DNA of 64,000 nt from contig NZ_CACSIK010000001.1 of NCBI RefSeq assembly GCF_902705875.1, positions 1,481,994 through 1,545,993 on the forward strand, in the 5' to 3' direction. The position numbers were made by a program, and so were the translations under genes. Source of the DNA: Zhongshania aliphaticivorans (GTDB lineage: Bacteria; Pseudomonadota; Gammaproteobacteria; Pseudomonadales; Spongiibacteraceae). The notes beneath the pieces were generated by a model, which saw nothing but the letters and a program-made list of their open reading frames with translations, did no database searches and was not told where the DNA came from. This document shows positions 6,261 to 37,171 of the stretch, piece after piece (position 1 is the stretch's first letter; each line of letters opens with the position of its first letter).

Positions 6261-6563
6261 TTACAATCCAAGGAAGACATTAACGCGCATATTATGTGGG
6301 CGAACTGAGCGGTGACCGCAATAGTGGTCATGTCGATGCCGTGGTTGCGTATAAGTTACATAGTGATGATGCTTATGCGCTACGTAGTGGCGCTTGTGCT
6401 GTTTGTGATGCGGTTGATTATGATGGTAGTTCTTATGGCTGTGGTGTGGTGATGAGTTGTGGTGCTCATAGTGGACCTTCACGCGACTATCGGCATGACT
6501 AAGTCCAGCGCCTACTAACAGTCCTAAACACGCGATAATAATGATAGGTTTTGTTCGTTTCAT
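6261..6563 (-). CDS. Small exported histidine-rich protein
   Basis: 100 residues. A signal peptide (MKRTKPIIIIACLGLLVGAGLSHA) precedes a mature region of about 75 residues with roughly 21 His in clusters such as HHSHKNYHHNQPHHKQHKRH and HKHHHY, and a single Cys. Such composition is typical of periplasmic Ni/Zn/Cu-binding or buffering proteins. The frame reaches upstream to 6635, but the ATG at 6563 is preceded by AAGGAGC at a good distance and begins the signal peptide. Divergent from the DUF3604 operon that ends with a HupE/UreJ protein, so a shared link to metals is possible but unproven. Confidence 0.7.
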   Translation of the reverse strand: MKRTKPIIIIACLGLLVGAGLSHADSRVKVHYEHHNSSPHHSHKNYHHNQPHHKQHKRHYVAHKHHHYVTYTQPRHRHDHYCGHRSVRPHNMRVNVFLGL

Positions 6564-6701
6564 GATAAATGCTCCTTGTTTCGGTGAGTACGTAGCTATC
6601 ATTGCACCGAGTGGCTGAACGTTTCCTGAATGCATCTACCTTGTAAATAAAGTATGTCCAACCAATAATGACCGTACTATAAGAATAAGGACAATAAGAA
6701 G

Positions 6702-8720
6702 ATGGTGGCGGGTAAGTTCTTAAGGCATTTTAGCTCAGTGTTTAGGTTTATATTATTGTTGGTGAATTTGAGTTTTATTGCCAATGCGAGCGGTGAAACT
6801 ACGACTTCTGGACGTATGGATAGCCAAGCTGATAATTATCGTGAGTTACGTCAACCATGTGTAAATCATAAGCCGCTTCGTCAAGTTTTTTTTGGCGATA
6901 CTCATGTACATACTAAGTATTCCTTAGATGCAAGTACGCAAGGTACTCGTACGTCTCCTGCGGATGCTTATCGCTTTGCTCGCGGCGCTGAAATTGGTGT
7001 GCAGCCTTGGACTGCTGATGGCAAACCGCTGCGCCGATTACAATTAGATCGCCCTTTAGATTTTGCAGTTGTCACCGATCATGCCGAATTGTTTGGGGAG
7101 GTGGAGGTGTGTCAAACACCAGCACTTTCAGGTTATGACAGTTGGCAGTGCAAAATGTTTAGGCAAATTCCCCGTGCTGCTTTTTTCTTATTCAATACGC
7201 AATCTTCACGTGCTAAGCGTTTGGGGGTTTGTGGTGAAAATGGAGAAAATTGTAGGAATGCGGCTTTACGTCCATGGCAGGAGATGCAGCAGGCAGCTGA
7301 AGACGCTTATGACAGAACTGAAAGTTGTGAATTCACAAGCTTTGTTGCGTATGAATGGACAGGTGCATCGGCTAATTTGGCAAATTTGCATCGCAATATC
7401 ATATTTAAAAATGAGCACGTTCCCACTTTACCATTGAGCTTTATCGATACCCCTTCAGCGCCATTATTATGGGATGGTTTAGATCGTGACTGTGTCAATG
7501 CAGGCACTGGTTGTGATGTATTGGTGATACCGCATAACTCGAATTTGAGCGATGGCTATATGTTTAGCGTGGCACGTGATGATGGCAAGCCCATTACCAC
7601 GGCAGATGCGGAGCAGCGTGCACGTTTAGAGCGTTTAGTTGAAGTTATGCAACATAAGGGTAGTTCTGAATGTTTTTATGACCCATTGAATAGTGCAGAT
7701 GAGCTGTGCGGCTTTGAACAGCTTCCGTATAACAGCTTTCCTGATAAGTTTATTGGCAAAGTGCTACCATTTTTCAGTCAGCCACCGTCAGCAAAATCAG
7801 GCTTTATTCGCGACGTGCTGCGCGAAGGGCTGGCACAGGAGCAACGCTTAGGGGTGAACCCATTTAAGCTGGGTTTTATTGCTAGTTCCGATACACATAT
7901 TGGCGCACCTGGTGCGGTAATGGAGCAAAACTTTTTAGGTCATGGTGGCGCTGGTGAACCTGCCGGTGACAAGCTACCGCAAGGGTTGCCCGACGACTTA
8001 GAATTTAACCCCGGTGGATTGGCTGCAGTGTGGGCAGAGGAGAATACGCGAAGCTCGCTTTTTGAGGCAATGCGGCGGCGAGAGACTTACGGTACGAGTG
8101 GCCCACGAATTAGATTGCGATTTTTTGGTGGTGATGAGTCTTTGCCTGAGGATATTTGTGAACGCAATGATTACGCTGCAATTGGGTATAAATATGGCGT
8201 GCCAATGGGTGGCGATCTCATGCCGAAAGAACTTGCTTCGGCACCTGTTTTTACCGTCTTTGCGCAAATGGATGCGGGACGTTCTGGTACGGCTAATATG
8301 CCTTTGCAGAAAATACAAATTATCAAAGGCAGTATTGATAGGGAAGGCAATAAGAGTGAAAAAGTGATTGACGTTATCGGTGACGAGAATGGTGAAGTGG
8401 GCGTTAATCTACAGAACTGTGAACCGTTTGGGCGGGGCCACAGCCAACTTTGTGGTCGCTGGCAAGATTCACAATTTAATGCAAATGAACACGCTTATTA
8501 CTATGCACGGGTGTTGGAAAACCCTAGTTGCCGTTGGAGTCAGCGTATTTGTGTTGCGGCGAAAGTGGATTGTAATAATGCTGAGTCGATTAAGCCTGGT
8601 TACGAGGGATGTTGTGCCCAAGAGCACCGACCTATTATTCAAGAGCGAGCATGGTCATCACCTATTTGGTATTCCCCAATTGAGCTAGATCCGGATTTAA
8701 GGAATAGGCCCTTACCTTAA
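6702..8720 (+). CDS. DUF3604 (PHP-like) exported protein
   Basis: 672 residues with an N-terminal signal peptide (hydrophobic ~residues 11-30). Metal-binding motifs of the DUF3604/PHP-like family are visible: GDTHVHTKYSLDA near residue 68, VVTDHAE near 126, PHNSN near 278 and SSDTHIGAPG near 397. The fold suggests a metal-dependent hydrolase in the periplasm or outside; the substrate is not known for the family. It contains many Cys (for example QNCEPFGRGHSQLCG), compatible with disulfides in the periplasm. First gene of a tightly coupled operon: its stop TAA shares one base with the ATG of the PPIase gene, followed by the HupE gene. This trio is a recurrent arrangement in marine gammaproteobacteria. 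Confidence 0.85.
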   Translation: MVAGKFLRHFSSVFRFILLLVNLSFIANASGETTTSGRMDSQADNYRELRQPCVNHKPLRQVFFGDTHVHTKYSLDASTQGTRTSPADAYRFARGAEIGVQPWTADGKPLRRLQLDRPLDFAVVTDHAELFGEVEVCQTPALSGYDSWQCKMFRQIPRAAFFLFNTQSSRAKRLGVCGENGENCRNAALRPWQEMQQAAEDAYDRTESCEFTSFVAYEWTGASANLANLHRNIIFKNEHVPTLPLSFIDTPSAPLLWDGLDRDCVNAGTGCDVLVIPHNSNLSDGYMFSVARDDGKPITTADAEQRARLERLVEVMQHKGSSECFYDPLNSADELCGFEQLPYNSFPDKFIGKVLPFFSQPPSAKSGFIRDVLREGLAQEQRLGVNPFKLGFIASSDTHIGAPGAVMEQNFLGHGGAGEPAGDKLPQGLPDDLEFNPGGLAAVWAEENTRSSLFEAMRRRETYGTSGPRIRLRFFGGDESLPEDICERNDYAAIGYKYGVPMGGDLMPKELASAPVFTVFAQMDAGRSGTANMPLQKIQIIKGSIDREGNKSEKVIDVIGDENGEVGVNLQNCEPFGRGHSQLCGRWQDSQFNANEHAYYYARVLENPSCRWSQRICVAAKVDCNNAESIKPGYEGCCAQEHRPIIQERAWSSPIWYSPIELDPDLRNRPLP

Positions 8721-29025: not shown

Positions 29026-29311
29026 TGGGCGATTCCCTTTCTGTTAATTGTCGGATTTTTGAGCGGGTGCGATCGGATGTGGATTACACAAACCGACATG
29101 CACCCGTGCCGGGGTCTGGCCGTGTACAAGACACCTCATGCCAGCAGATTTTGGCGGCCTAATGATAGTCATCTCTGCGGCTGATTGCCAGTGCTTGAGT
29201 CGGTAAAGGCCAAATTATGGCCGCTGTTATGTGGATTGCTACGAGTTTGTGGCCGCTGAGTACGCCTTTCTATATAATGCGCAGCCCACTCCTTTATTAG
29301 ATTTGCGCATT

Positions 29312-30205
29312 ATGTCCAGCTTGCCAAAACTTGAATTCAATAAACTTCAAAAGCGTCTGCGCCGCTTTACTGGGCAGGCGATAGAAGATTATAAAATGAT
29401 AGAAGAGGGTGACAGGATCATGGTTTGTCTGTCTGGGGGCAAAGACAGTTATACCATGCTCGATATTTTGATGAACCTGCAAAAGAGCGCGCCGGTAAAG
29501 TTTGAGTTAGTAGCGGTGAATATGGATCAGAAGCAGCCAGGTTATCCCGAAGAAGTGCTTCCCAATTATCTCGATACCTTGGGTATTGAGTACTATATCG
29601 TCAATAAAGACACCTACTCGATTGTTAAGCAAAAAATTCCGGAGGGCAAAACGACATGCGGGCTGTGCTCGCGACTTCGCCGCGGCACCCTTTACGCTTT
29701 TGCTGAAGAAATTGGCGCGACAAAAATCGCCTTGGGTCATCATAAGGACGATATCGTCCAAACCCTCTTTCTTAATATGTTTTATGGTTCTCGCTTATCT
29801 GGAATGCCCCCAAAATTGTTGTCAGACGACAAACGCAATATTGTGATTAGGCCTTTAGCGTATTGTCGTGAGAGTGATATCGAAGCATTCTCTGCACATA
29901 AGGGGTTTCCCATCATTCCCTGTAACCTCTGTGGCTCGCAAGAAAATCTCCAGCGCCAAAATATCCGCAAGATGTTGATGGATTGGGAGAAAGCCGATGG
30001 TAGTCGCATTGAGAAGATTTTTTCATCCATGCAAAATATCGCTCCCTCACAGATGGCTGATGCTAGCTTGTTTGATTTTGCTTCTCTGACAATTGATCGT
30101 AGCGGCGACCGTAAAGAGTATGGTTTTGATTCTACTCAGACTGTGGACGTGGGCGGTGTACCAAGCGCGCATAATGACAAGATTGAGCTGGTACAAATTA
30201 ATTAA
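29312..30205 (+). CDS. ttcA: tRNA 2-thiocytidine(32) synthetase TtcA
   Basis: 297 residues. PP-loop motif [10 protein letters not shown] activates C32 of tRNA; CxxC pairs [12 protein letters not shown] and [14 protein letters not shown] hold the iron-sulfur cluster. [18 protein letters not shown] and IRPLAYCRE complete the TtcA pattern. The frame opens at 29231, but the first 27 codons are not conserved, and ATG 29312 ([21 protein letters not shown]) matches the usual start. It marks the left border of the flagellar-derived locus. Confidence 0.94.
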
Positions 30206-30315: not shown

Positions 30316-30331
30316 TGGCCTGAATACTGCT
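30316..30331 (+). promoter_or_regulatory. Candidate sigma-54 promoter (-24/-12) of the reduced flagellar locus
   Basis: TGGCCTGAATACTGCT has the invariant GG and GC with 10 bases between and agrees with the consensus TGGCACG-N4-TTGCW at 9 of 12 fixed positions. It lies 140 bases before the mini-FliF gene and upstream of two FleQ-like boxes, which would then be in the leader, an arrangement known for several FleQ-controlled promoters of P. aeruginosa. Prediction by eye. Confidence 0.55.
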
Positions 30332-30385
30332 TCATTGGCAGTAATGGGTGTTTTTATGTCTTTATCGAATGAATTAAAATTAGTT

Positions 30386-30403
30386 TTGTCAATTTATTGA
30401 CGG
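30386..30403. promoter_or_regulatory. FleQ-box-like operator 1
   Basis: TTGTCAATTTATTGACGG. The 14-bp core GTCAATTTATTGAC is a perfect palindrome-type match to the reverse complement of the FleQ consensus described in Pseudomonas (GTCAATAAATTGAC). It lies 52 bases, about five helical turns, before a second copy. Confidence 0.75.
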
Positions 30404-30437
30404 CTTAGGGGTTGCGGGCCGTGACGAATTGATTCTC

Positions 30438-30455
30438 TTGTCATTATATTGACGG
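30438..30455. promoter_or_regulatory. FleQ-box-like operator 2
   Basis: TTGTCATTATATTGACGG, identical to operator 1 at 16 of 18 positions. Core GTCATTATATTGAC differs from the FleQ consensus at one informative position. It ends 15 bases before the proposed mini-FliF start codon. Confidence 0.7.
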
Positions 30456-30470
30456 TAAGTGGGGGTGTTG

Positions 30471-31169
30471 GTGTCAGAAAATACAGCTGAAGCAAATCCT
30501 TTATCGACGCCAAGCTTAGCTATGATTTTTTTAATGACTGCTTTGATTGTTATCGCGGTTACTATTTTGCTGCAGGCGGGGTGGGTGCAGTGGCGATTCA
30601 GTAGCGTTGAGATTGACGACAAACCTGCCAATGATCCCCGCAGTCAGCGAGAAGCTTATCTTGAAGCTAAAGCCTTGAAATTGGTGAGCTCAGTGGCTGA
30701 TGTACGCGATATTAATGTGATGGTACAGATAACGGGTCAATTAGATTCATCGTCTACCGAGAGTAGTGAGATTAAGACTGTATTGATTTTGGTTAATGAG
30801 ACTAAGCGCAGTGGGACGTTGGCGCAGGCAATTACCGCCATTGTGAGTACGGGATTGGCAATGGATGCTTCACGGGGTGATAGCTTGGCGCTGCAATTTC
30901 ATGAATTTTCTCATATAGCGGCTCGTAAAGAGAACGTGCTGGGGTTGTCGCTTATTCAGCGGACCTATCTTGGTCTGATCGTGTTGTTTATTGGTGTTTG
31001 TGGGTTTGCTTGGGCCAGCTTTCGCTATAAAAATCAACTTTTAAAGGTTGAGCATGCAAGAAATGCTTACCAAGACCAATTACAGCGGTTTAAGTTGATC
31101 GCATCTGACGAGCCGGCTCGGGTCGCCAGTGTGATGAGTGACTGGCTGAACGGGGTGAAAGACCGGTGA
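30471..31169 (+). CDS. Mini-FliF: truncated MS-ring-like protein with FliG-binding tail
   Basis: 232 residues against ~550-600 for normal FliF. Order: short N-terminus, membrane helix ~16-39, periplasmic domain ~45-160, membrane helix ~166-183, cytoplasmic tail to 232. The periplasmic part aligns by eye with the last ring-building domain of FliF (KLVSSVADVRDINVMVQITGQLD, then VLILVNE and ASRGDSLALQF, compare KRGDTLNVV in enteric FliF). The tail RFKLIASDEPARVASVMSDWL matches the FliG-binding end (DNDPRVVALVIRQWM). The RBM1, RBM2 and beta-collar regions are absent. GTG 30471 chosen after a G-rich ribosome site; GTG 30459 is possible. GTGA overlap with fliG implies coupled translation. A YscJ-like secretion ring is the alternative, but the tail and neighbours favour FliF. 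Confidence 0.75.
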   Translation: MSENTAEANPLSTPSLAMIFLMTALIVIAVTILLQAGWVQWRFSSVEIDDKPANDPRSQREAYLEAKALKLVSSVADVRDINVMVQITGQLDSSSTESSEIKTVLILVNETKRSGTLAQAITAIVSTGLAMDASRGDSLALQFHEFSHIAARKENVLGLSLIQRTYLGLIVLFIGVCGFAWASFRYKNQLLKVEHARNAYQDQLQRFKLIASDEPARVASVMSDWLNGVKDR

Positions 31170-32161
31170 CGGAGGCGATACATCTTTCTGATGCTGAGCA
31201 AGCCGCTGCGTTGCTAATGTCACTCGATAAAAGTGATGCAGCCGCGATCTTAAAGAATATGCCACCTGCTGATGTGCACCGGCTAGCTGCGGTGATGAGT
31301 AGTATGGATGCGCCAAGCCGAAGTGAATTTACTCAAGTTCTTGGGCGCTTTCATCGTGATGTAAAAAGTTACTCGGGTGTTAAGGCAAGCGCTGGTGATA
31401 GGGTCCTTAATCTATTACAAGAGGCCTTAGGTGAAGAGCATGCCAAACTACTTAGTGACCGCTTGGCTCTGCATGGCCAGTCAAAACATATTGCTAAATT
31501 GAAGTGGCTAGAACCACAAACCATTGTCGATATTATTCGCCGTGAACACCCGCAGATCCAAGCAGTGGTTATAGCGTGTCTAGATGCTGCGCAGGGTAGT
31601 GACGTTTTGCTGGCTTTTGAAGAAGAGCGACGGCTGGATTTGTTAAGCCGCTTATCTGCGTTAAAACATATCACCCCAATAGCGCTTGAAGAGTTAGATT
31701 GGTTGCTTGAACAATATTTTTCTAATATTGGCCGGCCATTAGGTCGAACAATGACTGGGGATTCAGTGGCTGCGGCATTGCTCAACGAAATGGATGTTGG
31801 GGCTGAAAGTAGTTTGCTTAATGCGTTGAGGGAGAATCAGCCAGAGCAAGCCGCACGAGTGGAAGAGTTGATGTTTGGTTTTGCTCAATTTAGTCATATG
31901 GCTGAGCACGATATTGAGGTTTTAGTGCGGCAATTAGCAGCAGAAGTACTGGCGCCTGCTTTATCTGAAACAACGGCACAGCTGCGTCGCAAGTTTATTG
32001 AGGCGTTAGGACAGCAGAAGAAGCAGGCTGTAGTTGCGTTATCTAAGCGTTTCACTCAGGCCGAAGTGCATGCAGCGCAATCTGAAATTGTGAGAATAGC
32101 AAAACAAATGGCGGCAGTCGGGGAAATTATCTTGGACGCGCGTAAAATTGATGTGTTTTAG
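31166..32161 (+). CDS. fliG: FliG-like flagellar switch protein with altered torque helix
   Basis: 331 residues, the normal FliG length. The N-terminal FliF-binding domain (~1-100), middle domain with the FliM-binding motif EHPQ at 127-130, and C-terminal domain (MFGFAQFSHM at 236 onwards, IAKQMAAVGEIIL near the end) are all present. In the helix equivalent to E. coli residues 264-297, the torque-generating charges K264, R281, D288, D289 and R297 appear replaced (residues 266-301 read ALSETTAQLRRKF...AVVALSKRFTQAE, with no acidic pair). So binding surfaces are kept while stator contact is probably lost. Starts at GTG 31166, overlapping the mini-FliF stop. Confidence 0.85.
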   Translation: MTEAIHLSDAEQAAALLMSLDKSDAAAILKNMPPADVHRLAAVMSSMDAPSRSEFTQVLGRFHRDVKSYSGVKASAGDRVLNLLQEALGEEHAKLLSDRLALHGQSKHIAKLKWLEPQTIVDIIRREHPQIQAVVIACLDAAQGSDVLLAFEEERRLDLLSRLSALKHITPIALEELDWLLEQYFSNIGRPLGRTMTGDSVAAALLNEMDVGAESSLLNALRENQPEQAARVEELMFGFAQFSHMAEHDIEVLVRQLAAEVLAPALSETTAQLRRKFIEALGQQKKQAVVALSKRFTQAEVHAAQSEIVRIAKQMAAVGEIILDARKIDVF

Positions 32162-32286
32162 CGATCGGTTGGTTGGCATATAGATAAAATCTCTCGCTTG
32201 GGGGATCATTGTCGCTCATGCTAACTACATTTAGTTTATATAATCAAAGTACCATTTATACCGGTTTACCCAAGGATGATTTATTG

Positions 32287-32631
32287 ATGTCTGCATTGAA
32301 TTTGGCTTTGCTACAAGAGCTTAGGGAGTTTATGGAAGAGGACGTCTTTATTTTAGTTGATGAATTCGAGCTTGATACACAAGCCCGTTTAGATTGCCTT
32401 GAAAAAGCGATTGAAAATAAAGACGCTGAAACGCTTAGAACAATCGCTCATACCATGAAGGGCGGCGCTGCGGCTTTGGGAGCAGAAAACCTTTCGCAAC
32501 ATTTTCGAGGTCTGGAATTGCGTGGCCGGGATGCAAGCTTTCAGGAAATTGAGCAAGACTTCAGTAATGCAAAGCGTTGCTTTGCGGAGGCGATGAGGCA
32601 AATAAGGGGGTGGTTGGCGCAGCCTTTATAA
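32287..32631 (+). CDS. HptB-like histidine phosphotransfer protein
   Basis: 114 residues forming a single Hpt four-helix bundle, with phospho-acceptor His55 in TIAHTMKGGAAALGAENL. It resembles HptB of Pseudomonas, whose gene lies between fliJ and fliK in several pseudomonad flagellar clusters; here it sits between fliG and fliM, the same relative place. ATG 32287 has AAGGA about 10 bases upstream; a TTG at 32209 in the same frame would add 26 poorly structured residues. It could pass phosphate to the CheY-like receiver or to a regulator elsewhere. Confidence 0.8.
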   Translation: MSALNLALLQELREFMEEDVFILVDEFELDTQARLDCLEKAIENKDAETLRTIAHTMKGGAAALGAENLSQHFRGLELRGRDASFQEIEQDFSNAKRCFAEAMRQIRGWLAQPL

Positions 32632-32633
32632 GG

Positions 32634-32651
32634 TTGTCATTTTTTTGACAG
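32634..32651. promoter_or_regulatory. FleQ-box-like operator 3
   Basis: TTGTCATTTTTTTGACAG, third member of the same 18-bp motif (15 of 18 identical to operator 2). It starts 3 bases after the hpt stop and lies 42 bases before the sigma-54-like promoter in front of fliM. Confidence 0.6.
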
Positions 32652-32692
32652 CAAGAATTTATTTTAAGCTGTTGATTTTATTATAAATAATG

Positions 32693-32708
32693 TGGCTCGA
32701 GTTTTGCT
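32693..32708 (+). promoter_or_regulatory. Candidate sigma-54 promoter of fliM
   Basis: TGGCTCGAGTTTTGCT agrees with TGGCACG-N4-TTGCW at 11 of 12 fixed positions and has exact -24/-12 spacing. It lies 45 bases before the fliM start codon, giving a predicted transcript start near 32719, and follows FleQ-like operator 3. This divides the locus into two transcription units. Confidence 0.75.
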
Positions 32709-32752
32709 CTTAGTACCTTAATTGTTGTTTTTGGCTTACTGGTGCGGACTTA

Positions 32753-33709
32753 ATGGTGAAGGAGCTACTTTCTCAAGCAGAAATTGATGCCCTACTGGCG
32801 AATGTGCAGTCGCCAGCATTGCAATCAGATCCCAATAATTCCCATCCTGTTACTGCACGCTCATTTGATTTAGCAAGCCGGCGCCGGTTAAAGAAACGAC
32901 GTCTTCCCGGCTTGGAACACATCAATAAGCGATTTGCAGAATATTTTCGTGAAAGTATTTCCGATGTGCTTGGCCAAAATGTTGAGGTTGCTGCTATTGA
33001 TGTGCAACTCCAGCCTTATGGTCAATACCTGCATTCCCTGTATGTACCTACGTCATTAAATTTAATGCGACTGCAGCCGTTAAGTGGTGTTGGTATGGTT
33101 GTTTTTGATGCCCGCTTGGTTTATCGATTAGTAGATATGTTCTTTGGTGGCAATGGCACCCAAGGGCATGCTGATGGGCGGGATTTCAGCAAGGTGGAGC
33201 GCCGTGTTATTCGTCGTGTCACTGAGCGAGCACATACAGATTATGAAAAGGCTTGGCGTTTAGTCGAGACGGTTGTGTGTGAGCCTATGGTAATGGAGGT
33301 AAATCCCGCGTTGGCGTCAATTACCGGCCAGGCCGATAACGTTGTGGTGTGCCGCTTTCAAATAGAGCTTGATAGCGGTGGCGGTGGTGAGTTTCATATA
33401 ACGCTGCCCTTAACGATGTTAGAACCGGTTATTGATGTACTTAGCAAAAATGAGTCGGTAGAGCAGTCGGGGAATACGACTCAGTGGCGCAGAGAATTGG
33501 GTCAGTCTTTACTGGATACCAAGGTGAGTACCGCATGTACGATCGCAGAGCCGGTAATGAGTTTATCCCAAGTTGCCTCTTTGAAAGCAGGGGATGTTAT
33601 TCCATTGCGTGCTAGTGAACCTTCGATATTAACGGCTTCAGGGATGGCTATGGCGAGGGCGCAGCTGGGTATTAGAAACGGATATTTAACACTCGAAATC
33701 CTTGAGTGA
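32753..33709 (+). CDS. fliM: FliM flagellar switch protein
   Basis: 318 residues (E. coli 334). The N-terminal CheY-binding peptide LLSQAEIDALL is intact at residues 5-15, the middle domain carries the GGxG motif as FGGNGT (GGNG at 132-135) that contacts FliG, and the C-terminal SpoA-like domain (~255-318, VSLSQVASLKAGDVIPL-like) is present. A basic linker RRRLKKRR follows residue 42. All features needed for a C-ring middle layer are kept although no other flagellar structural genes are nearby. It is preceded by its own sigma-54-like promoter and FleQ box. Confidence 0.92.
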   Translation: MVKELLSQAEIDALLANVQSPALQSDPNNSHPVTARSFDLASRRRLKKRRLPGLEHINKRFAEYFRESISDVLGQNVEVAAIDVQLQPYGQYLHSLYVPTSLNLMRLQPLSGVGMVVFDARLVYRLVDMFFGGNGTQGHADGRDFSKVERRVIRRVTERAHTDYEKAWRLVETVVCEPMVMEVNPALASITGQADNVVVCRFQIELDSGGGGEFHITLPLTMLEPVIDVLSKNESVEQSGNTTQWRRELGQSLLDTKVSTACTIAEPVMSLSQVASLKAGDVIPLRASEPSILTASGMAMARAQLGIRNGYLTLEILE

Positions 33710-33773
33710 GGCCCACTACTGAAGATTTCCTAAGAAAGTATTGCGAGTAATTTAACGACATTAGGTGTAAATC

Positions 33774-34193
33774 ATGGATAAACAAGATGAGCTTCGTCGC
33801 CAGCGACAGGCCTTAAAGGAAGAAATGGAGGCGGGTGATCACAAAGATTTAGAGCGATCCGGTAGCGCGGCTTTTAGTGCGCGGTCTCCGGTTGGCGGTG
33901 CTGAGAATCGGCTTAGTGAACGTTTGCCAAGTGGTCCGGATCTATCCATGGTGATGGATATTCCGGTCCGTCTAACCTTGGAGGTTGGCGGCAGCGATAT
34001 GCCAATTCGGGATTTGCTGCAACTTCATCAAGGCGCCATTGTTGAGCTAGATCGGCAAGCGGGAGAACCCTTGGATGTGTTGGTTAACGGGACGTTGATT
34101 GCGCGTGGAGAGGTTGTTGTGATTGAGGATAAGCTTGGGATACGGTTGACTGAGGTGGTAAGTCAGGCGGATCGTTTACAATCACTGTCTTGA
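33774..34193 (+). CDS. fliN: FliN flagellar switch protein
   Basis: 139 residues: a charged, probably flexible N-terminal region (~1-55) and a C-terminal SpoA domain (MVMDIPVRLTLEVGG, IRDLLQLHQGAIVELDRQAGEPLDVLVNGTLIARGEVVVIEDKLGIRLTEVV), almost identical in pattern to canonical FliN. FliN forms the base of the C-ring and normally also docks the export ATPase regulator FliH, which is missing here. Gap of 64 bases after fliM; likely the same transcript. Confidence 0.93.
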   Translation: MDKQDELRRQRQALKEEMEAGDHKDLERSGSAAFSARSPVGGAENRLSERLPSGPDLSMVMDIPVRLTLEVGGSDMPIRDLLQLHQGAIVELDRQAGEPLDVLVNGTLIARGEVVVIEDKLGIRLTEVVSQADRLQSLS

Positions 34194-34262
34194 TTGGGTG
34201 CATAAAATACGGGTGGTAGCGCGCCGGATAAGTGTAATGGCGCTGCGCCGATAGGGGATGTT

Positions 34263-34829
34263 ATGAAGCGAAGGCTGGTTTTTTTAAGCCGTGATATCAC
34301 GGGGCTTTGCGAGATTGTTGAGATGTTAAAGCAGCCGCATTTACAAGGTTGGCGCTGGCGTGTATTTACTCATGCGGCGGCGTCTGTTCAGCGTCTTGGG
34401 TTACCTCTAGCATCATCCTTGCTTCTAACAAACCTGCTAGGAGGGGCTTGGCGTGGCGGCTTTTGGGGTGTTTGCTTGGGCGTAATGCTGACGATAATTG
34501 TTCAGCCACTATTTAATATCGAATCAGGCGTGGCGTGGACTATTATTATGTATTCACTACCGCTTACGCTGTTATTTTTTGGTGCTTGGCTTGGGGGGTT
34601 AAGAGGCTTAATGCAGGGTAACCCAGCTATGGATGATTACCGCGGCTATGCAGAAAATAATTTGTATGTATTGCTGGTAGATGTTCAAGCGGTTGATCAG
34701 CGATTGTTAAAGAAAATTATGGCGATGTGTAACGCTGAGCAAATTGGTGAGCATACTCGCCGAATGTGGGGGTTTCCGTGGCGAGAAAATATCTTTCATC
34801 AACCTGATGCGGAGGCGGCAGCGATATGA
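34263..34829 (+). CDS. Small membrane protein (DUF1269-like layout), unknown role in the switch locus
   Basis: 188 residues. The N-terminal cytoplasmic part (KRRLVFLSRDITGLCEIVEML) and the C-terminal part (NNLYVLLVDVQAVDQRLLKKIM) frame two or three Gly-rich membrane helices (LPLASSLLLTNLLGGAWRGGFWGVCLGVMLTIIV and LPLTLLFFGAWLGGL). This layout is like DUF1269-type stress membrane proteins. It occupies the slot where export-apparatus genes (fliO-R, flhB, flhA, flhF) lie in complete clusters. ATGA overlap with the FleN gene suggests a coupled product. It may anchor or regulate the FleN ATPase; this is inference. Confidence 0.6.
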   Translation: MKRRLVFLSRDITGLCEIVEMLKQPHLQGWRWRVFTHAAASVQRLGLPLASSLLLTNLLGGAWRGGFWGVCLGVMLTIIVQPLFNIESGVAWTIIMYSLPLTLLFFGAWLGGLRGLMQGNPAMDDYRGYAENNLYVLLVDVQAVDQRLLKKIMAMCNAEQIGEHTRRMWGFPWRENIFHQPDAEAAAI

Positions 34830-35671
34830 CTCGTCCCATTCAAGTCGTTGCTGTTAGCGGAGGTAAGGGTGGTGTAGGTAAAAGCAATATTGCCATTAAT
34901 CTTGGTGTGGCGCTGGCTGATAGTGGCAAGCGGGTAGTCTTGCTAGATGCTGATTTTGGTCTCGCCAATGTCGATGTGCTTTTGGGGTTAAAAACCGATA
35001 AAACAATTGAACATGTACTGGACGGCAGTTGCTCGCTTCAGGATATTTTGCTGCCAGGGCCAGCGGGAGTAAAAATTCTTCCTGCGTCTTCTGGTACTCG
35101 GCATTTGAGCATGCTCAGCGCTTTAGAGCATGCGGGTTTAATTCGTGATTTTAGTGATATTGCAAACCAATTAGATGTTCTTGTTATTGATACGGCTGCG
35201 GGAATATCTGATTCGGTCATCAATTTTCTTACGGCTGCCAATGAGGTGTTAATGGTGGTGTGTAATGAACCAAGTTCGATTACAGATGTTTATGCCTTGA
35301 TTAAAATATTGAACCGAGATTTTGCTCGGCGCCGATTTAGGATTGTTGCAAATATGGTCGCGGATGAAGCGGAGGGTCGACAATTGTTTGATACCTTAAA
35401 TCAAGTGTGTGGCCAGTTTTTAAATGTCGCTTTGATTTATGCCGGCACGATACCTTTTGACGTGAAGTTGAGAGAGTCGGTGAAACAACAGGTGCCGGTG
35501 TTATTGGCGGCGCCAAGCAGCCCATCTGCGCGAGCGCTGAGTGAATTAGCACAGCAAGTGAATCAGTGGCCTTTACCGGCTAAGGCACAGGGCCACTTGG
35601 TGTTTTTTGTTGAGCAATTGTTGGCAGCGCAAGTTATGGGCGACGAAGCGGTAGAGCGAGCCAATGACTGA
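34826..35671 (+). CDS. fleN: FleN/FlhG MinD-like ATPase
   Basis: 281 residues. Deviant Walker A SGGKGGVGKSN (residues 11-21), the Walker A' segment LLDADFGLANVDVLLGL, Walker B VLVIDTAAGISDSV, and the NEPSSITDVYALIK segment follow Pseudomonas FleN along the whole length, including the C-terminal WPLPAKAQGHLVFFVEQLL. FleN normally limits flagellar number, binds FleQ to restrain it, and handles FliM/FliN assembly. Its usual partner FlhF is absent from the window. Retention beside FleQ-like boxes suggests that both its regulatory and its C-ring assembly role could persist. Overlaps its neighbours by 4 and 8 bases. Confidence 0.92.
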   Translation: MTRPIQVVAVSGGKGGVGKSNIAINLGVALADSGKRVVLLDADFGLANVDVLLGLKTDKTIEHVLDGSCSLQDILLPGPAGVKILPASSGTRHLSMLSALEHAGLIRDFSDIANQLDVLVIDTAAGISDSVINFLTAANEVLMVVCNEPSSITDVYALIKILNRDFARRRFRIVANMVADEAEGRQLFDTLNQVCGQFLNVALIYAGTIPFDVKLRESVKQQVPVLLAAPSSPSARALSELAQQVNQWPLPAKAQGHLVFFVEQLLAAQVMGDEAVERAND

Positions 35672-36143
35672 TAAGAAGCAGCCAGAGTTATCGCCGAATC
35701 CCTTTAGTGACAATAACGATCAAGTTGATCCAGTTGTTTCTAGGGCCTGTACCCCAGCTGATATGCATATTCTTGTTGTTGAGAGTTTCTCAACTATGCG
35801 GCGTATTATTGGTAATTTACTTGTAGAGTTGGGTTATCGTTATATTAGTGAGGCAGAAGACGGTTTATCTGCTCTACCCATGCTCCACAACCAACGTTTT
35901 GATCTGGTGATCACCGATTTACAAATGCCAAGAATGTCTGGCTTGGAACTGCTTCGCGCCATACGGGCAGATAATAAACTAGCTCATATTCCTGTGCTAA
36001 TGATTACGGCTGATGCGAAACGTGAGCAAATAATAGAGGCTGCGCAGGCGGGAGTTAGCGCTTATGTAGTAAGACCTTTTACGGCGGCAATCCTAGAAAA
36101 TAAAATGCTATCTATTGTTGGTCATTTAAACGATGGGCGTTGA
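35664..36143 (+). CDS. CheY-like receiver with altered active site
   Basis: 159 residues: a 33-residue N-terminal extension followed by a CheY receiver (HILVVESFSTMRRI to the end). Phospho-acceptor Asp85 (ITDLQMP) and Thr116 are kept, but the acidic pair D12-D13 of CheY is Glu40-Ser41 and the conserved K109 is Arg137 (YVVRPFTAA). Mg2+ binding and phosphorylation switching are therefore probably altered. ATG 35763 (MHILVV) would give a normal CheY length, but it lacks a good ribosome site, while the longer form overlaps fleN by 8 bases. Probable ligand of the intact FliM N-terminal peptide. Clearly derived from polar-flagellar CheY (EAAQAGVSAYVV segment). Confidence 0.8.
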   Translation: MTDKKQPELSPNPFSDNNDQVDPVVSRACTPADMHILVVESFSTMRRIIGNLLVELGYRYISEAEDGLSALPMLHNQRFDLVITDLQMPRMSGLELLRAIRADNKLAHIPVLMITADAKREQIIEAAQAGVSAYVVRPFTAAILENKMLSIVGHLNDGR

Positions 36144-36295
36144 AGCTGCCATTGCTCAATTAGTTTGCAATAGTGTGATCAAACCTACAGTTGCAGGGGT
36201 GGTGATAGTAGATAATATTGGGTCATTTCTCTTTGACAATAGGTGCATCGTTATCAGTACCATCAAAGGTCTAGTTGGTTAGCAGCGGGTAAGTC

Positions 36296-37171
36296 GTGAA
36301 CGAACAGGAGCATGAAGGCATTTTAGCGATTTTCCTTGCAGAGGCAGAGGAGATTGTTCAGCGTTTGTCAGAGCAGCTTGCAGAGCTTCGATATGGCTAT
36401 GATGGCCAGCGGATTCTCGATGATATTCATCGGGGATTTCATACTCTGTATGGTGGTGCAACGGTTTTAGAAATGGCTGAGTTGGCAGAGTGTTCCCGGC
36501 TAGCAGAACGAGCCATGGAGCGTGTTCGTAGCCGCCGAGTATCAATGACGCCAAGTTTGGTGTCATTGCTTGTTGCCGTGATTGGCGCTTTAGAACTCAT
36601 GCTGGCGCGCAGAATTAACCATCAATCACCGAGTTTTATTGATGGCGAATTGAAATCTCGATTACTACGTGCCGCGGATCGCAACCATAATCCATTTTCG
36701 GCTAATAATATGGTGGAGATACCTGCTGAGTCGATGGGGTTGTTTTTTGATGGTCGTTTACGGCCCAGAGAAGATACCATTGCGAGTATGGTACCTTCTG
36801 TCTTGCAATATGAAAGTGCCAGTTATGAGCCGTTTGTCACTGAGTCGTCTGCAGGTGCAGGCAGCGTGGAATCTAGCCTGAACGCTAGTCATACAGCGCG
36901 GCTGCGGGAGGGCGTAAGTATAGTAGAGTCGACGAATGTGAATGTTTCATCGTCACGTGGAGACGAGTCGCGAACCTTAAGTTCTGAGCAGCTGGGCTCG
37001 GAGACAAGGTTGAATAATGTGGGGCATCTAGTGAGTGAACTTAGCTGGGTAAAACAGCGATTGATGAAGTTTCATTCAAAGGGCCAATCTACTGAACTCG
37101 ATAAAGCCTTAACGTATCTAGACTTGGTAACACAAGATTTCGAGAATTGGCGTGATGAACAAGGTTCTTAG
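36296..37171 (+). CDS. CheA-derived protein lacking kinase and CheW-binding domains
   Basis: 291 residues against ~650-750 for CheA. The N-terminal P1-type Hpt domain (~1-105) has phospho-acceptor His49 in RGFHTLYGGATVLEM; the Lys of the usual HxxKGG is Tyr here. A Ser/Glu-rich linker (~140-235) follows. The last ~53 residues (VGHLVSELSWVKQRLMKF...LDKALTYLDLVTQDFENW) match the P3 dimerisation helices. The protein stops before P4 (ATPase) and P5. The 162 bases before ccmA carry no trace of P4/P5, so this is a clean loss and not a frameshift. Starts at GTG 36296 after AGCGGG. Probably a phosphotransfer or scaffold dimer. Confidence 0.75.
   Translation: MNEQEHEGILAIFLAEAEEIVQRLSEQLAELRYGYDGQRILDDIHRGFHTLYGGATVLEMAELAECSRLAERAMERVRSRRVSMTPSLVSLLVAVIGALELMLARRINHQSPSFIDGELKSRLLRAADRNHNPFSANNMVEIPAESMGLFFDGRLRPREDTIASMVPSVLQYESASYEPFVTESSAGAGSVESSLNASHTARLREGVSIVESTNVNVSSSRGDESRTLSSEQLGSETRLNNVGHLVSELSWVKQRLMKFHSKGQSTELDKALTYLDLVTQDFENWRDEQGS

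What the first reader, a model, noticed from the sequence alone, without database searches (positions are those of the whole stretch)
30316..37171. A switch-only flagellar locus with no flagellum: mini-FliF, FliG, HptB, FliM, FliN, FleN, CheY and kinase-less CheA
Seen: nine adjacent intact plus-strand genes encode homologs of the C-ring (FliG, FliM, FliN), a minimal MS-ring anchor, FleN and chemotaxis-derived proteins, while ttcA on one side and ccmA on the other leave no room for rod, hook, filament, export, stator or receptor genes. Known: complete polar-flagellar clusters of Pseudomonas-type bacteria run fliEFGHIJ-(hpt)-KLMNOPQR-flhBAF-fleN-fliA-cheYZAB-mot-par-cheW and then ccm. Here the survivors keep that exact order. 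Inference: an ancestral flagellar region was pruned to its membrane-anchored switch and kept under selection for a non-motile or at least non-flagellar role, for instance a polar scaffold, signal-responsive ring or positioning device.
Basis: partly seen in the sequence, partly recalled or inferred. Interest (0 to 1): 0.95.

Follow-up and report, generated by a model that had tools for sequence, protein, structure and literature searches.

The report
Extra flagellar switch with own regulator
A marine bacterium that already carries the genes for a complete flagellum elsewhere also keeps the stripped-down switch of an older flagellum together with what looks like that flagellum's own gene regulator, which suggests that the switch part of the motor found a second job unrelated to spinning.

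Summary
The nine genes at 30459-37171 are real, intact and in the stated order, but "no flagellum" is wrong: the same genome has a separate flagellar cluster with its own fliF, fliG, fliM and fliN. The locus is an additional switch-only set. It lies between ttcA and ccmA in 20 of 21 genomes of the family (the miss is 70% complete). FliM phylogeny and ccm synteny make it the remains of the order's ordinary polar flagellum. Selection is purifying. FliG has lost its stator-facing charges but keeps the FliM-binding motif; FliM keeps its N-terminal peptide; in 8 of 20 genomes FliF remnants are fused to FliG. New here: tandem FleQ-type boxes precede the operon, and the only other tandem pair in this genome precedes a FleQ relative that has lost its receiver match and c-di-GMP residues. 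Best reading: the FleQ-FleN-FliM/FliN partner switch, once used in flagellar assembly control, kept as a non-rotary membrane scaffold. The output is unknown and nothing was tested in cells.

The parts
30387..30402 (.). FleQ-box-like palindrome 1; its 14-bp core fits GTCAAT-NN-ATTGAC exactly
   Evidence: consensus from PMC10723142 (passages)
30439..30454 (.). FleQ-box-like palindrome 2, 52 bp after the first (tandem)
30459..31169 (+). mini-FliF: N-terminal TM, small periplasmic part (RBM3-like, weak evidence), second TM, FliG-binding-type tail
   Evidence: weak; weak
31166..32161 (+). FliG, all three domains; EHPQ motif kept, stator-facing charges lost
32209..32631 (+). Hpt phosphotransfer protein (start probably at 32287, judged from 112-126-aa relatives); phospho-His motif kept
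32635..32650 (.). third FleQ-box-like palindrome, ahead of fliM
32753..33709 (+). FliM with intact N-terminal LSQAEIDALL peptide
33774..34193 (+). FliN
34263..34829 (+). small membrane protein; divergent member of a common family, with a paralogue elsewhere in the genome
34826..35671 (+). FleN/FlhG (MinD-type ATPase)
35664..36143 (+). CheY-like receiver; phospho-acceptor Asp kept, acidic pair changed to E-S and the conserved Lys to R
36296..37171 (+). truncated CheA: P1 (Hpt) plus P3-type helical hairpin; no kinase (P4) or P5

Best explanation
The locus is the vertically inherited polar-flagellar cluster of this family, stripped of export, rod, hook, filament and stator genes and kept as a non-rotary, membrane-anchored FliG-FliM-FliN scaffold. 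Proposed mechanism: mini-FliF tethers FliG to the inner membrane; FliG recruits FliM/FliN through its kept EHPQ face; the FliM N-terminal peptide binds FleN (and perhaps CheY); FleN, when not held by FliM/FliN, acts on the surviving FleQ relative, which binds tandem boxes in front of this operon, a box in front of fliM and tandem boxes in front of its own gene. Scaffold assembly and FleQ-type transcription thus form a closed feedback circuit, the flagellar assembly-control loop detached from the flagellum and from c-di-GMP. Shown by sequence: gene content, conservation, selection, lost torque and c-di-GMP residues, kept interface motifs, box sites, FleQ relative. Inferred: that a ring or patch forms, that FleN bridges it to FleQ, that FleQ binds these boxes, that it sits at a pole. 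Unknown: the final output. Identity and descent are about 0.9 likely; the circuit as mechanism about 0.45.
For: Switch set between ttcA and ccmA in 20 of 21 family genomes. FliM tree: 20 window-type rows one clade (99/95) beside 20 polar FliM of other families, away from 20 rows of the resident type (100/100; 19 family rows and G118). Window copies score higher than resident copies against outside clusters: FliM 20/20, FliN 20/20, FleN 13/13. dN/dS in five relative pairs: FliM 0.025-0.05, FleN 0.03-0.04. EHPQ 20 of 20; at the five torque positions a same-sign charge survives at only one position in four of 20 genomes and at none in 16. FliM [LM]SQxE[IV]DALL 20 of 20. FliF tail fused to FliG in 8 of 20. 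Box sites: 44 in the 20 loci (about 140 kb) against 4 in about 302 kb of flanks; 7 strict sites in 3.98 Mb, 3 here and 2 before fleQ. That protein: 60% identical over 338 aa to an outside FleQ, Walker A and GAFTGA kept, R138/R144/R151/E330/R334 changed. FlhG-FliM-FlrA partner switch: PMC11236974, passages.
Against: G001 and G002 (second genus) have no FleN or Hpt in the locus and no boxes; G018 lacks boxes too, so the circuit is not universal. Window FliG scores below the resident FliG against outside clusters in 10 of 10, and the FliG, FliN and FleN trees do not place the window copies decisively. The 20 outside regions were chosen from high scorers of a window-type FliM profile, which favours the window FliM. 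The resident flagellar cluster has its own FleQ-like activator, 51% identical to the 449-aa protein with a similar helix-turn-helix, which might bind the same boxes. The reversed control pattern gives 3 sites in the same genome; in the window alone the palindrome count is not above chance (22 of 100 shuffles as high); PMC6120874 (passages) calls this consensus unreliable in P. fluorescens. No sigma-54 pattern upstream. No expression, localisation or phenotype data.
Confidence: 0.5

Rival explanations
1. The locus modulates the resident flagellum: the torque-dead FliG/FliM/FliN enter or compete with the resident rotor, or titrate FlhF/FlhG/pole landmarks, acting as a clutch or as a limiter of flagellum number.
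For: Both FliM types co-occur in 20 of the 20 genomes that have either; loss of FliG torque charges would make mixed rotors weaker; FliN is still 48% identical between the two systems.
Against: FliM is only 25% and FliG 27% identical to the resident copies; the window set has its own FliF-type tail; no strict box site falls in the resident cluster.
Confidence: 0.2
2. A chemosensory output ring: Hpt and CheA-P1 pass phosphate to CheY, which binds FliM and changes the scaffold's state to signal onwards.
For: Hpt His motif kept in 17 of 18; CheY Asp57 kept in 15 of 17 and CheA-P1 His in 16 of 17; FliM N-terminal peptide kept 20 of 20; in G013 the CheY Asp and the CheA-P1 His are lost together.
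Against: CheA has no kinase domain; the second residue of the CheY acidic pair is Asp in only 8 of 17 (Glu in one more) and is lost in the window and all five close relatives aligned; G013 keeps the system without either phospho-site.
Confidence: 0.15
3. A pole or envelope scaffold for another machine (type IV pili, chemoreceptor arrays), with FleN as positioning ATPase.
For: FliF/FliG are recruited to the pole in polar flagellates (PMC11236974, passages); the genome has a second chemosensory set with a CheW-domain ORF of 1826 codons.
Against: No pilus or receptor gene among the nine; FlhF, the usual pole recruiter, is not in the locus.
Confidence: 0.1
4. A decaying remnant with no function.
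For: Several parts are degenerate (CheY pocket, CheA, FleQ receiver); mini-FliF, the membrane protein and CheA evolve faster (dN/dS 0.16-0.33, 0.06-0.29, 0.12-0.28); single genes are missing in G001, G002 and G014.
Against: Purifying selection on FliG, FliM, FliN, FleN and CheY in the range of ccmA; open FliG, FliM, FliN and CheY frames in all 20 genomes; conserved operator-like sites.
Confidence: 0.05

Closest known systems
Polar flagellar cluster of Pseudomonadales (fliEFGHIJ...fliMNOPQR-flhBAF-fleN-fliA-cheYZAB...ccm; order partly recalled)
   Same: Gene order, FliM ancestry, CheY (56-61% to nine outside polar CheY), CheA P1 and P3, ccm neighbour in 4 of 8 outside genomes tested
   Different: No export, rod, hook, filament, stator, FliA or FlhF genes; FliG torque charges, CheA kinase and most of FliF gone
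FlhG (FleN)-FlrA (FleQ)-FliM/FliN partner switch of Shewanella polar flagella
   Same: FliM N-terminal peptide, FliN, FleN and a FleQ relative all kept; switch as described in PMC11236974 (passages; the original paper was not held)
   Different: No flagellum is built from it; FleQ relative lost its receiver match and c-di-GMP residues; FlhF not in the set
Half-motors and rotor proteins in non-motile genomes (ISME J 2025, PMC12199754)
   Same: That paper reports rotor proteins without filament in 11% of non-motile species and raises an alternative function (section 14 read)
   Different: Here a whole syntenic switch operon with a candidate regulator, in a genome that also has flagellar genes for a full organelle
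Hat-like inner-membrane structure related to the flagellar export apparatus (J Bacteriol 2022, PMC9380563)
   Same: A non-flagellar structure related to flagellar parts (passages)
   Different: Its cytoplasmic densities depend on FlhA/FliP and it is still seen in mutants without FliF, FliG or FliM; the window set has no export protein

Membership tests
Bacterial flagellum (functional motility organelle) | Type III export apparatus encoded with the switch | tested here: not met
   None of the nine ORFs matches export proteins; export genes lie in the other cluster
Bacterial flagellum (functional motility organelle) | Torque-generating charges on FliG C-terminal domain | tested here: not met
   At most one of five positions keeps a same-sign charge in any of 20 window-type FliG; all five do in 10 of 10 outside FliG and in the resident FliG (the region is gappy, so single positions depend on the alignment)
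Flagellar C-ring (FliG-FliM-FliN) | FliG EHPQ motif, FliM and FliN domains present | tested here: met
   EHPQ 20 of 20; FliM and FliN over NCBIfam cut-offs in the window, FliG below its NCBIfam but above its Pfam cut-offs
Flagellar C-ring (FliG-FliM-FliN) | Assembles into a ring in the cell | not testable with these tools
   Needs imaging
FliF MS-ring protein | RBM1, RBM2, RBM3/collar, two TMs and FliG-binding tail (recalled) | tested here: not met
   236 aa; two TM-like stretches, a small periplasmic part and the tail; Pfam match below cut-off; fold matches to FliF weak
FleQ regulon | FleQ-type boxes in the promoter and a FleQ-family protein in the genome | tested here: met
   Boxes; FleQ relative; binding itself not tested
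c-di-GMP-responsive FleQ | c-di-GMP contact residues R138, R144, R151, R185, E330, E332, R334 (PMC10723142, passages) | tested here: not met
   Of those conserved in the outside reference (E332 is not), only R185 is kept in the window genome's protein
Chemotaxis CheA/CheY pathway | CheA kinase domain | tested here: not met
   P1 and P3 only

The most novel reading that the evidence does not exclude
A new kind of apparatus: a stand-alone, non-rotating flagellar switch, in some species with FliF remnants fused to FliG, run by a private FleQ that controls little besides itself and this operon. It would be a membrane-bound, assembly-sensing signalling ring that outlived its flagellum in a whole bacterial family.
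Probability: 0.45. Interest if true: 0.93.

Novelty: new variant of a known kind. Interest (0 to 1): 0.85.

Why it matters
Rotor proteins without a filament have been counted in many genomes and an alternative function suggested (PMC12199754, section 14). Here is a sharply defined, family-wide case in which the assembly surfaces of the switch were kept, its motor surface was lost and a candidate dedicated regulator survived. [quoted passage not shown] It is also a natural series of FliF reduction and FliF-FliG fusion, useful for asking which part of the MS ring the C-ring needs.

Tried and rejected
Rejected: 'no flagellum'. Rejected: that the locus supplies the resident flagellum's missing rotor (that cluster has its own fliF, G, M, N). 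Disfavoured: neutral decay. Simple sigma-54 and FliA patterns on the operon strand upstream of the first gene in 20 genomes: none. PF06490 in the own genome found only an unrelated 224-aa regulator; the FleQ relative was found through its boxes, because its receiver no longer matches that profile. Origin of the resident flagellum: its FliM type appears at E 1e-45 in 19 of 390 order genomes, 18 of them this family plus G118; of 27 database hits the few with organism names are Zhongshania or Spongiibacter, so transfer from elsewhere is not shown. Wider occurrence: FliM profile, built from family sequences, over 390 order genomes (best outside family 368 bits against 422-543 inside) and over 369 class genomes at E 1e-111 (1 hit, the window's own). 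A divergent switch-only set elsewhere could be missed: 251 outside genomes had a FliM match and only 20 neighbourhoods were read; 20 of 20 were ordinary clusters. The membrane-protein profile found a common family (175 of 390 genomes), so it is no marker. PHROGs gave nothing for mini-FliF. mini-FliF found only itself and one 84% relative in the protein database.

Rows dropped: A2 (FliM) and A3 (CheY) used 17 of 20 window-type sequences and A6 (CheA) 17 of 20, near-copies left out; A7 used 12 unfused mini-FliF rows, one of them a database protein. Outside FliG were 10, FleN 11 (tree) or 13 (scores) of 20 regions because the others did not contain the gene. The FliM tree's resident rows are 19 family genomes and G118 (none from G016 or G003). 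dN/dS: saturated pairs gave no value; the two window pairs were saturated for FliG, FleN, Hpt and CheY, and gave 0.06-0.08 for FliM and 0.06 for FliN; the G010/G011 FliG and mini-FliF values are the same fused ORF. In one search a query labelled ownCheW was in fact a piece of CheA; nothing rests on it.

Literature: searches (open-access PMC only); no title or abstract start in the listings described this locus or a natural FliF-FliG fusion. Seen as passages only: PMC10723142, PMC6120874, PMC11236974, PMC9380563; PMC12199754 as passages and section 14.
Full report
What is there. Nine plus-strand ORFs lie between ttcA (29231-30205) and ccmA (37334 on). Pfam and NCBIfam identify FliG, FliM, FliN, two Hpt-domain proteins, a MinD/FleN ATPase and CheY; FliG is below its NCBIfam cut-off (152.7 of 226.7 bits) but above its Pfam cut-offs, and mini-FliF is weak (E 0.0095, below cut-off). 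The mini-FliF model (pLDDT 72) finds Salmonella FliF ring structures at PDB ranks 1-8, but with no match at E 0.001 or better, query TM about 0.3, and OsmC/Ohr proteins close behind. The last gene aligns colinearly with polar CheA over P1 and the P3 segment and stops before the kinase (hhalign probability 99.7%); its model shows a confident P1 helix bundle, a disordered linker and a C-terminal helical hairpin.

The host and its flagellum. FliM relatives found in named genomes were Zhongshania in 5 of 5 loci (69-73% identity). The window lies in a 3.98-Mb genome with FlhA, a second FliG, a second FliM and FliN, a fli/flh run at C1:2.231-2.257 Mb, five rod/hook-type proteins and CheW-domain ORFs of chemotaxis type. 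The window set is therefore additional. Window FliM is 25%, FliG 27%, FliN 48% and FleN 46% identical to the resident copies.

Conservation. In 20 of 21 family genomes there are two FliM copies, one of the window type (38-74% identity) and one of the resident type; the remaining genome is 70% complete and showed neither. In all 19 relatives read, the window type sits between ttcA and ccmA. FleN and Hpt are in 18 of 20 each (both missing in G001 and G002, the second genus); CheY in 20 of 20; the membrane protein in 18 of 20 (not found in the locus of G014 and G002); a P1-type CheA protein in 20 of 20, without P3 in G001 and G002 and with no clear P3 in G013. In 8 of 20 a FliF-type tail is fused in frame to FliG: with a periplasmic part in G013, G001 and G002; with closely spaced TM-like stretches in G010, G011, G019 and G020; tail only, with no TM-like stretch, in G014 (in G001 the simple test saw one TM-like stretch).

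Descent. In a 60-row FliM tree the 20 window-type rows form one clade (99/95) next to 20 polar FliM of other families, and the 20 resident-type rows (19 family, one from G118) are cut off by a long, fully supported branch. By eye the two sets branch in nearly the same order inside the family, as expected if both were in its ancestor. Against the 20 outside regions the window copy scores higher than the resident copy for FliM in 20 of 20, FliN in 20 of 20 and FleN in 13 of 13, but for FliG in 0 of 10. The regions had been picked from high scorers of the window FliM profile, a bias for FliM. The FliG, FliN and FleN trees are not decisive. In 4 of 8 outside genomes with enough sequence ccmA follows the polar che genes (G249, G337, G176, G029; a ninth contig ended early), which is the window's position. 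The simplest account is that the old polar cluster was gutted in place and another flagellum took over. Where that flagellum came from is not shown.

Selection and surfaces. Pairwise dN/dS in five relative pairs (saturated values left out): FliM 0.025-0.05, FliN 0.03-0.06, FleN 0.03-0.04, FliG 0.04-0.10, CheY 0.02-0.12, membrane protein 0.06-0.29, CheA 0.12-0.28, mini-FliF 0.16-0.33 without the fused pair; controls TtcA 0.01-0.14 and CcmA 0.05-0.21. FliG keeps EHPQ in 20 of 20. At the five torque positions a same-sign charge survives only at K264 in G004, G006 and G019 and at R297 in G013; 10 of 10 outside FliG and the resident FliG keep all five (the region is gappy). FliM keeps [LM]SQxE[IV]DALL in 20 of 20. 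The mini-FliF tail is invariant at E218, P219, R221, A223, V225, S227 and W229 in 12 of 12 unfused rows. CheY keeps Asp57 in 15 of 17, but the second residue of the acidic pair is Asp in only 8 of 17. In G013 the CheY Asp and the CheA-P1 His are both gone.

Regulation. Two palindromes TGTCA-N6-TGACG lie 52 bp apart upstream of mini-FliF and TGTCA-N6-TGACA lies ahead of fliM. In the window alone the count of three is not unusual (mean 1.64 in shuffles; 22 of 100 shuffles as high). Conservation makes the case: with at least 9 of 10 positions matching, 44 sites lie inside the 20 loci (about 140 kb) and 4 in about 302 kb of flanks; 17 of 20 loci have at least one, 14 have an upstream pair 39-52 bp apart and 12 one before fliM; one of the 44 lies inside fliN and is probably chance. 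The core matches the FleQ box GTCAAT-NN-ATTGAC, and tandem boxes are typical of FleQ's biofilm-type promoters (PMC10723142, passages), though PMC6120874 found the consensus unreliable in P. fluorescens (passages). In the whole genome the strict pattern occurs 7 times (reversed control 3): three here, two in tandem before a 449-aa sigma-54 activator, one between genes I take for ppx and ppk, one at C1:911 kb. None is in the resident flagellar cluster. The 449-aa protein is 60% identical over 338 aa (391 bits) to the FleQ of an outside polar cluster and 51% over 360 aa (348 bits) to the resident cluster's own activator; among the 120 listed database relatives, those outside the Zhongshania/Spongiibacter set are mainly FleQ-type proteins, and several closest copies are named flagellar regulator A. 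Orthologues in G005, G008, G009, G004 and G017 (61-71% identity) also have a box next to the gene. Its receiver does not match PF06490, and c-di-GMP residues R138, R144, R151, E330 and R334 are changed while Walker A K180 and R185 are kept.

Mechanism. In Shewanella FlhG binds the FliM N-terminus, and FlrA and FliM share a site on FlhG, linking C-ring assembly to transcription (PMC11236974, passages). The parts kept here are those: an anchor, FliG, FliM with its peptide, FliN, FlhG (FleN) and a FlrA (FleQ) relative. I therefore propose a closed assembly-to-transcription circuit without flagellum. Weak points are G001/G002, which lack FleN and boxes, the resident FleQ-like activator as another candidate for the boxes, and the absence of any output gene. 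Clutch on the resident rotor, chemosensory ring, scaffold for another machine and neutral decay are the rivals, in that order.

Verdict. I rate it a new variant of a known kind, since nearly every part is a flagellar or regulatory protein of known family, while the stand-alone module as such did not appear in the listings I searched.

Noticed in passing
L050, L051, L052, L053, L057, L058, L059, L060 (FliG ORFs): In-frame fusions of FliF remnants to FliG, from a form with periplasmic part down to a soluble tail; a graded reduction series.
   Followed up: partly
L194:4806, L199:4180, L202:4123, L207:3886, L209:3812: A GTCAT-N4-ATGAC palindrome recurs between genes that look like ppx and ppk (recalled) in five of the 12 genomes searched; probably another regulator's site, not FleQ.
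   Followed up: no
L006:4830-5849 and 6284-7390 (resident flagellar cluster): The resident cluster's two sigma-54 activators have no receiver domain match; the second is a FleQ-like protein with a similar helix-turn-helix.
   Followed up: partly
L192:7266-10290 (G009): In G009 a TonB-receptor-like ORF and a small ORF lie between the two boxes that in relatives are adjacent in front of fleQ.
   Followed up: no
G000:C2:244624-253091: Second chemosensory set with a CheW-domain ORF of 1826 codons, perhaps a pilus-type (ChpA-like) system.
   Followed up: no
window 34263-34829; G000:C1:487590-488042: The locus's membrane protein is a divergent member of a family found in 175 of 390 genomes of the order; the same genome has a paralogue.
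   Followed up: partly
L052 (G013): CheY phospho-Asp and CheA-P1 phospho-His lost together in one genome, suggesting a linked pair.
   Followed up: no
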